A DNA stretch of 64,000 nt. Origin: Deltaproteobacteria bacterium ADurb.Bin207 (lineage in GTDB: Bacteria; Myxococcota_A; Polyangia; Polyangiales; Polyangiaceae). Of the stretch, positions 41,722-46,658 are shown piece by piece. Below the pieces are notes generated by a model. It had not been told where the DNA came from. It did not search any database and worked only from the letters and a program-made list of their open reading frames with translations. Both the position numbers and the translations under genes were made by a program. Position 1 is the stretch's first letter, and every line of letters starts with the position of its first letter. The DNA lies in NCBI GenBank assembly GCA_002070115.1, contig MWCO01000010.1:62001-126000 (forward strand), read 5' to 3'.

Positions 41722-43608
41722 ATGGACCCAAAAGCGGTAGAGCTTCAAGCTGCGGTCATCCGCGTCCTTCAGGACGATCGGCTCGATGATCGAGAACTTC
41801 TCAAAGAAATCGAGCAGCTTGCGGCCTCGGACCCCTTTCGATTCCCCGGCTTCAGTCATCTGTGGGCCCCCGAGCTGTACCGACGAAATCGCTTTATATT
41901 TCGAGAGTTTATACTCTATCGGAGCAATGCCTTCGGCGACCACGGCTACTACGATGACAGGGGCAACTTGTTCAATCCCTGGAGCGCGACCGAAACGAGA
42001 AAAACACTCGAAGAGCTGCTCGATCAATGCGGAAAAGACAACGAGGTCCGGCTGTTTCGCCGTCTTTATGAGGAAAGCATCGGTGGGTCGTGGCGGGGAG
42101 CCGAAACGTGGCGAACCGATCTCAAGAACGCTTTTTTGAGCGCAGCCGATGATCGACAACGTCGCGTGGCGCTCGAAAAATACGATCTCCCATCGGCATG
42201 GCTGGATGAACCGACCGCCCTGGCTCTTTATCAACGATCACCTTCGCTGTGTTCGGCGTTCATCCTGGCTCACGCTCCGACGAATCTATCGAGTCTGTGG
42301 GGCAAACCACGCGGCCCGTGGCATCAGTTGCGTCAACTTGCCACCGAAAAGGGCGATATCGACTTCGAACAAAAGCTATTTCGTCTTCAGGCTACCGAGC
42401 AGCAATGGGCCGAGCGTGTTCGATCCATCAGCCCCATCGCCTCACCGCAGCAGCGGGTCGATTCGCTGGACAGGATTCATCCGCCCACGACACCCCGCAA
42501 CGCTACTCAGGTTTATTATGAGCTTCTCACCACGCACGGAAGCGATGTGTTGCCTTATGTCATGAAGCACCTCGACTTGCGGGGACATGCTTATTGGTCA
42601 GGCAATTTGAAAGGATTGGACAAGTTGATCCAACTCGCCTGGGACAACGGGTGGCTGGCTCTATGGGCGGGTTTGCTTCGTAACTCGGACGAAGCCTCTT
42701 ACAATCGCGCGATCACCAATCTATTGGACGATCAAGGGAGCTTGGGAGAATACGAGACCAAGCGGCGCCTGCTGCTTCTTGCGGGCCTTGGGCAAGAGAT
42801 GAACCATCCGGGGTTTGGATTGGCGCTGGCGCTACCGCTCACCGAGAAAACGGCGATGGCGATGTATCGTCGTTTTCCCGACCTGCTTCGCACTTCATTT
42901 CGACACCATTGTCGGCCAGACTGGGCCCACACCTACGAATCCCTCGTTCGGGCTGCCATCGAGGCCCCAGACGAGACCCTCGTGGACTGGTTCGCTAGCC
43001 GTGTGATCACCATGGTCATCCATGGTGCATCCCACAAGCATGCGGCCATCGTGAGGCTTTTGGTCCAGCATTACGAGACGCTGCAGCCTCAGCCGGAGAC
43101 ATTGGCGCGACGATGTGGCGCGGTGTTATCGGCCATTCCGGCGGGCGTCATCGGCAACTACGATTATCTTCTTCGAAACAACGCTCTCGCGCAATGGATG
43201 TTCCAGCAAAAACTCGTTGCGTATCTGCACGACCCTCGAGTCGTGCGCGATTTTCTCGAGTCACCGCAAATTCATGTCAACCAGCTTGGATTTCACATTT
43301 TATCCCTCGATGATCCCGCTGTTGCGCAGTTGTCTGAGCACAACCTCGACCTGCTCTGCGCCGCGCTGCTGCGCAAGCTACATCGTCGAACGCGCCTGCT
43401 CGCGATCGATGCACTCCTCCAAGCGGTGCGAACGGAACGAGCGGCACGCGTGGTATTACCCAAAGCACGGGCCGCCCTGCGATTACCCGACAAGAGATAC
43501 CCCAAAGAGAATCTCATTGCCTTGATCGCCACCATCTTGCACCGGCATCCCTCCTTGCGCTCTGAGCGCGAGCAGCCCCCCATCTTCGACCACCGAATGC
43601 AACCATGA
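41722..43608 (+). CDS. retron-associated ARM/HEAT-like helical protein
   Basis: A 628-aa protein with no signal peptide or enzyme motif. It is almost entirely helical, built from degenerate 35-45-residue repeats (for example LRRTLLIAGLG-type helices, FLESPQIHVNQLGFHILSLD, RRTRLLAIDALLQAVRTERA), so an ARM/HEAT-like solenoid is likely. Its TGA overlaps the ATG of the SWIM protein gene (ATGA at 43605-43608), implying coupled translation. With the SWIM protein, the msr-msd and the RT it forms one plus-strand operon. An ARM-like plus winged-helix/SWIM pair is what I recall for retron type XIII; the family call is therefore from context and fold. It is probably part of the effector or a regulator of it. 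Confidence 0.75.
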   Translation: MDPKAVELQAAVIRVLQDDRLDDRELLKEIEQLAASDPFRFPGFSHLWAPELYRRNRFIFREFILYRSNAFGDHGYYDDRGNLFNPWSATETRKTLEELLDQCGKDNEVRLFRRLYEESIGGSWRGAETWRTDLKNAFLSAADDRQRRVALEKYDLPSAWLDEPTALALYQRSPSLCSAFILAHAPTNLSSLWGKPRGPWHQLRQLATEKGDIDFEQKLFRLQATEQQWAERVRSISPIASPQQRVDSLDRIHPPTTPRNATQVYYELLTTHGSDVLPYVMKHLDLRGHAYWSGNLKGLDKLIQLAWDNGWLALWAGLLRNSDEASYNRAITNLLDDQGSLGEYETKRRLLLLAGLGQEMNHPGFGLALALPLTEKTAMAMYRRFPDLLRTSFRHHCRPDWAHTYESLVRAAIEAPDETLVDWFASRVITMVIHGASHKHAAIVRLLVQHYETLQPQPETLARRCGAVLSAIPAGVIGNYDYLLRNNALAQWMFQQKLVAYLHDPRVVRDFLESPQIHVNQLGFHILSLDDPAVAQLSEHNLDLLCAALLRKLHRRTRLLAIDALLQAVRTERAARVVLPKARAALRLPDKRYPKENLIALIATILHRHPSLRSEREQPPIFDHRMQP

Positions 43609-45188
43609 TCCCGCTAGCAGTTTCGTATGCTTCTCCAAGCGTCCTCGAATCTGGCCGCGACAGCCAACTGCTAGGTCTCGCGGCCAATGATCATCGTCCT
43701 GTGCGCTTGGTTGCGCGCGTGCGCAATCCTCTCTTGTTCCGCTTTTGTCTTCAGACCCTTGGTTCGCTGGTCTGGTCCGATGATACGTGGATATCGGATG
43801 ACGAGTGGACGGCGTTCACTCTCGATCCAGTGGTGACGGTGCATCCGGACAGAATCATGTTCGAGGCATTTTCTCGCGACCAGAGCGCCTACGGCCTGCT
43901 CATCATCGACCGGGACCAATTCGAAACGTCGGGGCAAGTGTCTTGTGGAACGACGAATGTGGACTTTACGGCCTGGTTGTATGGCGCCTTGGCCGAGATG
44001 CGATCGAGCCGAACGACCACGTTTCGGGTGGAGGCTGGTGGAATCGAGGTGAGCACGCGGCAAGCGGGAGGACGCTTCGAACAGAAGGTGGAACTGCCGG
44101 AAAGCTGGGTCCGCGGGTTTTTGAATATATCCGCGGCCATGGCATTTCCGGGAACACGGTTGCGCGCCGAACCGGTCGACATGCTCGCGGTCATTCGTTA
44201 CTTGCAGCAACACAAGGCCAAGACCGCACCACGGGCACTTCGCTACGAAATGATTCCCGGTCGAGAGGCGGAGATCGTCGTGGAGCCCTTCGAAACACGA
44301 TTCCCTCTGGTGGGGGCCAATCACGGTTATCCAAAACCACGGATCATTCGCACGTGGGGGCGACGTCGTTTGCGCCTTATCGAACCCTTGCTTCCTTATG
44401 CCGAGCACGTGGAGATTTATCTCAAGGGACGCGCGATGCCGAGTTTTTATGCTGTGGGTTTGCCCGGCTATACGTTCGTGCTGGGGCTCAGTGGATGGAC
44501 AGCGAATTCTTTGACGACAGGAACTGGTTTTGCCGCTGGTTCGTCTGTGTCGGATTCTGCTGTCGACAGGGCGCTGATGCTGCTTCAGCAACAATACCAT
44601 ATCGACGTGGAAACACTTTGCGCGGCCGCTACCATGGACAAACCGACGGCGATGGCTGCGCTCGAAACGCTTATTCGACGAGGGCGAGCGGTATTCGACG
44701 TGCAGGCGCGTCGCGTTCGGTATCGCGAACTCTTGGCGGAACCTATCGACGAAGCGAAGATATATCCTCCGGATCCACGGCTCGTACAGGTTGAGCGATG
44801 GCATCGCGAAGGTGCGGTGCATATTCGCGATACGATACTTCGAAAAACGACGAAAACTCGTCAGTTCAAGCTCGATGGGCAATGGATACAACGACAGGTC
44901 GACCTGCGCGATCGGGTCCTTACAGGACGGGTTGGGGAGCAAGAAGAAGTGGAAGTCGTGCTCGATGATGAAGGCAGAATCATCTTTGGGCGATGTGGTT
45001 GTGATCACTTCGTTTCGTATGCGTTGTCGAAAGGTCCTTGCGCGCATCTCATGGCGCTCGAGCGCCAGAGCCGGCGACATTTGCACGATCCGTCCGCACT
45101 TAAGTCGACCGCTAACCCGATATCTTCGCTTCCGAACGAAGGGACAGAAGTTCTTCTTGACGACAATAACGAGTACGATGATGAATGA
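43605..45188 (+). CDS. retron-associated winged-helix/SWIM zinc-finger protein
   Basis: A 527-aa protein. A SWIM zinc finger CxCx(n)CxH lies at about residues 464-482 (GRCGCDHF, then GPCAHL). About residues 325-375 look like a winged-helix unit (ALMLLQQQYHIDVETLCAAA then ALETLIRRGRAVFDVQARRV). The N-terminal 300 residues are mixed alpha/beta and unrecognised. SWIM fingers bind nucleic acid or protein, so it may bind the msDNA or the RT. The gene overlaps the ARM-like gene by 4 bp; its stop lies only 4 bp before the a1 arm of the msr-msd. Confidence 0.82.
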   Translation: MIPLAVSYASPSVLESGRDSQLLGLAANDHRPVRLVARVRNPLLFRFCLQTLGSLVWSDDTWISDDEWTAFTLDPVVTVHPDRIMFEAFSRDQSAYGLLIIDRDQFETSGQVSCGTTNVDFTAWLYGALAEMRSSRTTTFRVEAGGIEVSTRQAGGRFEQKVELPESWVRGFLNISAAMAFPGTRLRAEPVDMLAVIRYLQQHKAKTAPRALRYEMIPGREAEIVVEPFETRFPLVGANHGYPKPRIIRTWGRRRLRLIEPLLPYAEHVEIYLKGRAMPSFYAVGLPGYTFVLGLSGWTANSLTTGTGFAAGSSVSDSAVDRALMLLQQQYHIDVETLCAAATMDKPTAMAALETLIRRGRAVFDVQARRVRYRELLAEPIDEAKIYPPDPRLVQVERWHREGAVHIRDTILRKTTKTRQFKLDGQWIQRQVDLRDRVLTGRVGEQEEVEVVLDDEGRIIFGRCGCDHFVSYALSKGPCAHLMALERQSRRHLHDPSALKSTANPISSLPNEGTEVLLDDNNEYDDE

Positions 45189-45192
45189 ACCC

Positions 45193-45345
45193 GCTCTCGG
45201 AAGCGCTTTGCAGAACCAGCCTCTCATGCTGCGGTGTTTCGCCGCAGTGGAATGTTGCCTCCTTTCCACCGCCACGGTCCCCACGTGCGTAACGTGGGGA
45301 GCCATGGTGCCAGAGCCTCGAAGTGGTTCAGGCGATTCCGGGAGC
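45193..45345 (+). ncRNA. candidate retron msr-msd non-coding RNA
   Basis: About 153 nt between the SWIM gene and the RT gene. The a1 arm GCTCTCGGAAGCGC (45193-45206) pairs with a2 GCGATTCCGGGAGC (45332-45345): 13 of 14 positions, one of them G-U, one mismatch. After a1, AGC at 45218-45220 offers a branching G. An msr-type hairpin CTGCGG-TGTTTCG-CCGCAG (45229-45247) has TTT in its loop, as retron msr loops do. A second small hairpin GTGGAA/TTCCAC (45247-45269) follows. The msd hairpin has a perfect 9-bp top, TCCCCACGT-GCGTA-ACGTGGGGA (45278-45300), and extends outward with few mismatches to about 45270-45309. Exact RNA ends and branch point are inferred. Confidence 0.82.
45340..45344 (+). promoter_or_regulatory. 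Shine-Dalgarno of the RT gene, embedded in a2
   Basis: GGGAG lies nine bases before ATG 45354 and belongs to the a2 arm. When a1 and a2 pair, this site should be hidden, so RT translation could depend on msr-msd folding or processing. Seen in sequence; the regulatory consequence is inference. Confidence 0.6.
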
Positions 45346-45353
45346 ATTTGTCC

Positions 45354-46658
45354 ATGACCTGGCTGATCGCGTTGATGGTCCTTGCCGGAGTGTTTGTGCT
45401 GCTTCGCGCTCTCGCACGTAAAAAACAAAACGCAATTCACACCATCGAACCCGGACTCACCCAGGATGAACCCACGTCGGATAGCGCCAGCGGCGGGTCC
45501 AAATCTCAGCTAGAACCCAAGACGACACAATCGCTTCGCAAGCAAACCATCGACGAGCGCTTGTTGCCCAAAGCCCCTTCTCGGGGCCCCCACCACCCAC
45601 GAAGCAGACTCTTTGACGCTGCATCGGCACGTCGACGGTTTTCTCATTCGATGCGTTGCAAAAACCGAGATCTCTCGGTGCTTGCCGAAGACCCGGAGCA
45701 ACTTGCGCGTCATGGATTGCCGCTTTGGAGGAACGAAGCGCAACTGGCCGAGGCCCTTGGGCTCAGCGTAGGTCAACTTCGTCACCTATCGATGCATCGC
45801 ATCGCGGAACGCACACCCCATTACATCACGTTTTCCATTCCCAAGCGTTCTGGTGGAAACCGTTTGATTCAAGCGCCCAAACGTAAGCTGAAAGCCGCTC
45901 AGAAAAAAGTGCTTTCCCTTCTCATCCACAAGCTTCCCGTCCATGAGGCTGCCCACGGTTTTCGACAGGGTCGGTCCATTCGAACGGGAGCGGAGCCGCA
46001 TGTTCATCGACGCGTGGTCATCCGGCTCGATATCAAAGATTTTTTTCCTTCTCTCACGTTTGCTCGAATACGTGGGTATTTGATCGCGATGGGATATGGC
46101 TACGAGGTGGCAACCACCCTCGCTTGTTTGTGTTCCGAACCACAGCGTCAACCGGTCGAAGTCGGAGGCGAGATTGTCCACGTGCCCGTCGGACCACGGG
46201 TCGCGCCGCAAGGAGCACCGACAAGCCCAGGACTTCTGAACGCGATATGTCATAAGCTCGATTGCCGTATGCAAGGGCTCGCACGCGCTCACGGGTTTGC
46301 GTACACACGCTATGCCGATGACCTCACGTTTTCGGGTGACTATCCGGATCGGGTTGGTAAGATTCTCTCTCGCGCCCGTGCGATCATCCGTTCCGAAGGA
46401 TTCGAGGTCAATCCAAGCAAAACGCTCGTCATGCGAAGGGGCAAAGCACAGCGAGTGACAGGCGTCACAGTCAACGAAACCTTGGGGTTATCCCGACAAC
46501 AGCGACGTCTGGTTCGAGCCGCGATTCACCAAGCTTCGTTCGTGTCTCCCATGGATGGCACAAGCAAAGCTCGCTTGCTCGGCAAGGTCGCTTACATCCA
46601 AATGCTCAACCAATCGCAAGCCGAACCCCTACGTCGTCAGACGGAAAAATTGACCTGA
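45354..46658 (+). CDS. retron reverse transcriptase, Mx162-like, with N-terminal membrane helix
   Basis: A 434-aa RT that would copy the msd into msDNA, primed from the branching G. Core motifs: IRLDIKDFFPS (motif A, about residue 225), QGAPTSPG (286), YADDLTFS (320) and the retron-specific VTGVTVN (368). The usual NAxxH appears as GAEPH before motif A. The stretch from NEAQLAEALGLSVGQLRHLS through KLPVHEAAHGFRQGRSI resembles the myxobacterial Mx162 RT closely. Residues 3-22 (WLIALMVLAGVFVLLRAL) form a clear transmembrane helix followed by ARKKQ, and a 75-residue polar linker joins it to the RT fold. ATG 45354 is chosen for the GGGAG nine bases upstream; the frame is open to 45234, but that part overlaps the msr-msd. 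Confidence 0.92.
   Translation: MTWLIALMVLAGVFVLLRALARKKQNAIHTIEPGLTQDEPTSDSASGGSKSQLEPKTTQSLRKQTIDERLLPKAPSRGPHHPRSRLFDAASARRRFSHSMRCKNRDLSVLAEDPEQLARHGLPLWRNEAQLAEALGLSVGQLRHLSMHRIAERTPHYITFSIPKRSGGNRLIQAPKRKLKAAQKKVLSLLIHKLPVHEAAHGFRQGRSIRTGAEPHVHRRVVIRLDIKDFFPSLTFARIRGYLIAMGYGYEVATTLACLCSEPQRQPVEVGGEIVHVPVGPRVAPQGAPTSPGLLNAICHKLDCRMQGLARAHGFAYTRYADDLTFSGDYPDRVGKILSRARAIIRSEGFEVNPSKTLVMRRGKAQRVTGVTVNETLGLSRQQRRLVRAAIHQASFVSPMDGTSKARLLGKVAYIQMLNQSQAEPLRRQTEKLT

What the first reader, a model, noticed from the sequence alone, without database searches (positions are those of the whole stretch)
45193..45356. a2 arm of the msr-msd contains the RT Shine-Dalgarno
GGGAG at 45340-45344 is part of a2 and lies nine bases before the RT ATG. 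Pairing of a1 with a2, needed for msDNA priming, should hide it. This would give a direct link between ncRNA folding or consumption and RT translation, a feedback I do not know from described retrons.
Basis: partly seen in the sequence, partly recalled or inferred. Interest (0 to 1): 0.78.

Follow-up and report, generated by a model that had tools for sequence, protein, structure and literature searches.

The report
Retron RNA arm hides RT ribosome site
In this bacterial retron (an anti-phage element that makes a DNA-RNA hybrid), the RNA arm needed to start DNA synthesis also carries the ribosome-binding site of the reverse transcriptase gene, so folding of the RNA should shut that gene off until a ribosome finishing the gene upstream pulls the arm open; this is a prediction that awaits an experiment.

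Summary
The locus is a type XIII retron (628-aa protein, SWIM protein, msr-msd, RT). Outer a1 45193-45206 pairs with outer a2 45332-45345; GGAG 45341-45344, nine bases before the RT ATG (45354), lies in a2. a1/a2 pairing is supported by covariation across 15 homologues. SD-in-a2 with the same spacing is kept in the nearest relative (L114, 61% RT identity) and recurs in three more members, but ten other members have a2 17-126 nt from the start, mostly with a separate SD. It is lineage-specific, not needed for the retron. First, a1 begins 0-4 nt after the SWIM stop codon in 8 of 9 SWIM-adjacent members, so a ribosome terminating there should cover the bases that hide the SD: coupling of RT translation to its partner gene is likelier than pure feedback from ncRNA consumption. 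Second, the prototype Eco1 has the same layout: effector stop codon at the end of a1, TAAGG in a2, RT ATG 1-7 nt later. No paper found discusses this. No function was tested; the predicted cost of exposing the start region drops 3.5-9 kcal/mol when a1 is blocked.

The parts
41722..43608 (+). First gene of the retron operon, 628 aa, no Pfam/NCBIfam/PADLOC match; overlaps the SWIM gene by ATGA (43605-43608)
   Evidence: ORF list; no family; homologues upstream of SWIM in L114, L100, L115, L116, L118, L119, L120 and L097
43605..45188 (+). SWIM zinc-finger protein of type XIII retrons (527 aa); stop codon UGA 45186-45188
   Evidence: PADLOC SWIM_XIII 8.6e-135; CxC...CxH motif
45193..45206 (+). Outer a1 arm GCUCUCGGAAGCGC; its bases 45194-45197 pair with the RT SD; begins 4 nt after the SWIM stop codon
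   Evidence: fold; curated table; covariation
45213..45218 (+). Inner a1 arm GAACCA, next to the presumed priming guanosine
   Evidence: inner pairs 1-3 paired in 13/13 members, two of them with changes on both sides
45219..45219 (+). Presumed branching (priming) guanosine, in the invariant AGC (45218-45220)
   Evidence: A26 G27 C28 invariant in 15 ncRNAs; role inferred from described retrons
45230..45246 (+). Conserved msr stem-loop UGCGGUGUUUCGCCGCA
   Evidence: fold, alignment
45247..45331 (+). Second stem-loop, long hairpin (about 45270-45309), conserved CCAGAGC (45310-45316) and inner a2 arm UGGUUC (45324-45329); msr/msd boundary not determined
   Evidence: fold; alignment; inner helix
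45332..45345 (+). Outer a2 arm GCGAUUCCGGGAGC
45341..45344 (+). Shine-Dalgarno GGAG of the RT gene (GGGAG 45340-45344), spacing 9 nt to ATG
45354..46658 (+). Retron reverse transcriptase, 434 aa, with a hydrophobic N-terminal helix
   Evidence: PADLOC RT_XIII 2.9e-134; Pfam RVT_1 1.2e-21; hydropathy

Best explanation
A type XIII retron operon in which the outer a1/a2 helix also acts as a translational lock on the RT gene. Shown by sequence: the RT SD lies in a2 and pairs with a1; a1 starts 4 nt after the stop codon of the upstream SWIM gene. Inferred: in a transcript whose msr-msd has folded and is not being translated upstream, a1 holds the SD and RT is poorly translated. A ribosome terminating on the SWIM stop codon covers about 12 nt downstream of that codon's first base (to about 45198), that is the GCUCUC that pairs with GGGAGC, so each round of SWIM translation opens the RT start. 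RT synthesis is thereby tied to synthesis of its partner protein. When RT is in excess and binds the folded ncRNA, the lock should close again; that autogenous limb is a secondary, unshown consequence.
For: SD in a2 with identical spacing in WIN and L114 (RT 61% identical), with a1 varying compatibly (GCUCUC/GGGAGC to GCUCCC/GGGAGC). SD-in-a2 also in L115, L284, L118. All five have the upstream stop codon 1-4 nt before a1; among members without that juxtaposition 0 of 7 have SD in a2 (one-sided Fisher 0.019, ignoring relatedness). The preceding gene pair overlaps by ATGA, typical of coupled genes. Modelled cost of opening the start region falls 3.5-9.0 kcal/mol when a1 is blocked in the five, little or not in the others. 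Same layout in Eco1-type retrons: effector stop codon at the a1 end, TAAGG in a2, RT ATG 1-7 nt after a2, in all six distinct sequence types examined. Coupling by relief of structure around the downstream RBS is established, rpmI-rplT being an example (PMC12548453).
Against: Three members with the same stop-codon/a1 juxtaposition (L116, L119, L100) start RT 17-29 nt after a2, so the lock is dispensable there. With a1 blocked, the window's SD is still predicted mostly paired elsewhere (P unpaired 0.09 to 0.20). GGAG at spacing 9 is a modest SD. Phage-borne retrons L196, L272, L253 have SD-like sites in a2 without a gene ending near a1, so coupling cannot explain every case. No expression data.
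Confidence: 0.45

Rival explanations
1. By-product of compact packing: the ncRNA fills the whole gap between two genes, so when a2 ends 3-8 nt before the RT ATG any SD must fall in a2. Ribosomes or processing keep the arms open often enough and nothing is regulated.
For: a2-to-start distance varies freely from 3 to 126 nt within the family; most retrons surveyed have no SD in a2; the SD match is only four bases with 7% chance in shuffles.
Against: A 13-pair helix over an SD is expected to repress strongly; the layout is kept over large RT divergence between WIN and L114 and is constant in the Eco1 group.
Confidence: 0.35
2. One reading: feedback from the ncRNA itself. Folded, RT-bound ncRNA represses RT; consumption of the RNA by reverse transcription and RNase H frees a2 and raises RT translation.
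For: SD in a2 and pairing confirmed. SD-like sites in a2 without a nearby upstream gene (L196, L272, L253) would fit a mechanism that does not need upstream translation.
Against: Not conserved in the family; RNA once cut by RNase H may simply be degraded; no evidence that RT binding stabilises the outer pairs, which lie about 20 nt outside the priming site.
Confidence: 0.15
3. RT is mainly translated from a shorter or processed mRNA that starts inside or after the msr-msd, so a1 is absent and the SD is free; the locked transcript serves only as ncRNA.
For: Mature msDNA RNA in described retrons is processed out of a longer transcript (general knowledge).
Against: No promoter could be tested; the ncRNA directly abuts the SWIM stop codon, leaving no intergenic room for a promoter between the gene and a1.
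Confidence: 0.05

Closest known systems
Type XIII retrons (PADLOC RT_XIII + SWIM_XIII; classification of Mestre et al. known to me from memory)
   Same: RT and SWIM protein match the PADLOC models at 1e-134 and 1e-135; the ncRNA lies between them
   Different: SD of the RT inside a2 is seen only in part of the subfamily; the extra 628-aa gene has no family
Retron Eco1 (Ec86) and relatives
   Same: Effector stop codon at the end of a1, TAAGG in a2, RT ATG 1-7 nt after a2
   Different: Unrelated ncRNA sequence and effector; SD spacing 8-14 nt; the stop codon is inside the arm there, 4 nt before it here
Translational coupling by RNA unfolding (rpmI-rplT and others; PMC12548453)
   Same: Downstream RBS held in structure that translation of the upstream gene opens
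   Different: Here the structure is itself the arm helix of a retron ncRNA, so opening it should compete with msDNA synthesis

Membership tests
Retron, type XIII | RT of the type XIII clade | tested here: met
   PADLOC RT_XIII best model, 2.9e-134, next RT_other 4.7e-92
Retron, type XIII | Linked SWIM-domain protein | tested here: met
   SWIM_XIII 8.6e-135, adjacent in WIN, L114, L115, L116, L100, L118, L119, L120, L284
Retron, type XIII | Structured ncRNA with a1/a2 inverted repeats next to the RT | tested here: met
   Fold z -4.4, own-pair versus cross-pair test, conserved ncRNA alignment
Retron, type XIII | Priming guanosine and msDNA product | not testable with these tools
   Invariant AGC beside the inner helix fits; msDNA not shown
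Translational coupling by RNA unfolding | Downstream RBS sequestered by structure | tested here: met
   Prediction only: SD in a2 paired with a1
Translational coupling by RNA unfolding | Upstream gene ends where its ribosome can open that structure | tested here: met
   SWIM stop codon 4 nt before a1; ribosome footprint from general knowledge
Translational coupling by RNA unfolding | Downstream expression depends on upstream translation | not testable with these tools
   Needs reporter experiments

The most novel reading that the evidence does not exclude
In several independently derived retron lineages, including the prototype Eco1, a1 and a2 serve both as priming helix and as an anti-SD/SD switch: a ribosome finishing the effector gene opens a1/a2, blocking priming on that RNA while turning on RT, so that effector, RT and msDNA are balanced on one transcript.
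Probability: 0.25. Interest if true: 0.75.

Novelty: new variant of a known kind. Interest (0 to 1): 0.52.

Why it matters
How retrons keep effector, RT and msDNA in balance is not explained in the literature I could search, and in described retrons the RT-msDNA complex restrains the effector. If the arm helix also gates RT translation and is opened by ribosomes on the partner gene, the balance would be built into the transcript. Because Eco1 has the same layout, the idea can be tested at once in an ordinary laboratory strain, and it would bear on retron editing tools in which ncRNA and RT are moved apart.

Tried and rejected
Universality in the family: rejected, since a2 is separated from the RT start in ten of fifteen members. 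An upstream RT start inside the ncRNA (for example GTG 45234): rejected, since homologues align at ATG 45354 and the sequence upstream is conserved RNA. Rfam: no retron match in the window. Relatives in viral contigs with the window's RT or the ncRNA motif: none of this subfamily. Further members in related families and classes: only two more, L283 and L284; L283/L117 is cut before a1 and could not be used. Lax local pairing scores over long windows were uninformative and were replaced by fixed windows and cross-pairing. Literature searches on retron with Shine-Dalgarno, ribosome binding site or translational coupling gave nothing on a2 and the RT start; subscription papers are missing from the library.

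Full report
What it is. The finding lies in a retron operon: a 628-aa protein of unknown family (41722-43608), a SWIM zinc-finger protein (43605-45188, overlapping the first gene by ATGA), the msr-msd (45193-45345) and a reverse transcriptase (45354-46658). The RT and the SWIM protein match the PADLOC type XIII models at 2.9e-134 and 8.6e-135. The same gene order, with homologues of both proteins, is found next to the related RTs L114, L100, L115, L116, L118, L119 and L120.

The observation. GGGAG is at 45340-45344 and ends nine bases before the ATG at 45354. The fold of 45189-45359 has -77.6 kcal/mol (z -4.4) and closes with a1/a2. Fifteen homologous ncRNAs align well: invariant AGC, a TTCGCCG stem-loop and a CCAGRGC motif. 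In fixed windows placed by those motifs and not by complementarity, the a1 and a2 regions of the same genome pair with a mean score of 38.5 against 21.6 for arms taken from different genomes (0 of 100,000 permutations). An inner helix, at a position fixed by the invariant AGC and the AAG-U motif, is paired at its first three positions in 13 of 13 distinct members, two of these positions with changes on both sides. So a1/a2 is real and consists of an inner priming helix (45213-45218/45324-45329) and an outer helix (45193-45206/45332-45345). The SD sits in the outermost pairs of the outer helix.

How general it is. I located a1, a2, start codon, SD and upstream stop codon in fifteen members. SD inside a2: the window and L114 (a2 ends 8 nt before ATG, SD spacing 9 in both), L115 (3 nt), L284 (3 nt, TTG start), L118 (6 nt). 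SD elsewhere or absent: L116 (29 nt, own SD GAGGGG), L119 (17 nt, none), L100 (23 nt, GTG start, weak), L120 (25 nt, own SD AGGAG), L097, L098, L099, L104, L105, L106 (27-126 nt, own SDs). The tree does not resolve whether the five SD-in-a2 members had one origin.

The upstream stop codon. In WIN, L114, L115, L116, L284, L118, L119 and L100 a1 begins 0-4 nt after the stop codon of the SWIM gene; in L120 it is 34 nt away, and in the other clade the nearest upstream reading frame ends 10 to hundreds of nt before a1. From general knowledge of the ribosome footprint, a ribosome with the UGA 45186-45188 in its A site reaches to about 45198. That is the stretch (GCUCUC) that pairs with GGGAGC. Five of these eight have SD in a2, none of the other seven (one-sided Fisher 0.019, not corrected for relatedness). 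Folding models agree: blocking a1 lowers the cost of opening -15..+6 by 3.5 (window), 9.0, 4.6, 3.6 and 6.3 kcal/mol in the five, against -6.7 to 2.4 in the others. A caveat is that with a1 blocked the window's SD is still predicted to be mostly paired elsewhere.

Comparison with described retrons. In Eco1 (E. coli BLR(DE3), L285) a1 is TGCGCACCCTTA, a2 TAAGGGTGCGCA; the effector's stop codon TAG ends with the base directly after a1, and the RT ATG is 6 nt after a2. In six distinct sequence types of this group, RTs down to about 60% identity, the stop codon is always at the same place in a1, TAAGG always in a2, and the RT ATG 1-7 nt after a2. (The annotation of Eco1's RT in that record starts 57 nt further downstream.) A rough survey of other retron RTs found a few more cases with SD-like sites in a2 (L196/L198 GAGGTG 8 nt before ATG, L272, L253), here without a gene ending at a1, while most retrons show none. 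The layout is thus not unique to this locus and is present in the best-studied retron, although I found no paper that discusses it.

Mechanism. The best-supported reading is translational coupling by RNA unfolding, an established mode (PMC12548453), with the special twist that the structure opened is the retron's own arm helix. Shown: anatomy, pairing, covariation, juxtaposition. Inferred: repression by a1, relief by the terminating ribosome, competition with priming, and any autogenous effect of RT. The plain alternative, compact packing without regulation, stays nearly as likely, because a2-to-start distance varies freely and the SD is a short match (7% in shuffles).

Noticed in passing
window 45354-45425 and L114, L120: The RT begins with a strongly hydrophobic, probably membrane-spanning helix (mean hydropathy 2.4-2.6 over 19 residues) in the window, L114 and L120; most other members start with a short amphipathic-looking helix (xxWLKxLxG). 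A membrane-attached retron RT would be unusual.
   Followed up: partly
L285 2501-2513 (Eco1) and L289-L306: The effector stop codon UAG of Eco1-type retrons overlaps a1 and its G is the base directly after a1, which I recall as the branching guanosine; a1 (CACCCTTA) resembles the 16S anti-SD tail.
   Followed up: partly
window 41722-43608: Conserved first gene of the operon (628 aa), found with the SWIM gene in related retrons from Myxococcota, Eremiobacterota, Verrucomicrobiota and Planctomycetota, has no Pfam, NCBIfam or PADLOC family.
   Followed up: partly
L097, L099, L103: In a second clade the SWIM gene is present but the ncRNA lies 300 nt or more downstream of it, and the RT has its own SD, so the ncRNA probably has its own promoter there.
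   Followed up: partly
L137 upstream of the RT: A retron with a 29-position a1/a2 arm (few mismatches), the strongest long-range helix of the survey.
   Followed up: no
G000:C164:2882-3517 (L001) and G000:C1:224777-224938 (L003): Two further reverse-transcriptase matches in the same genome, not examined.
   Followed up: no
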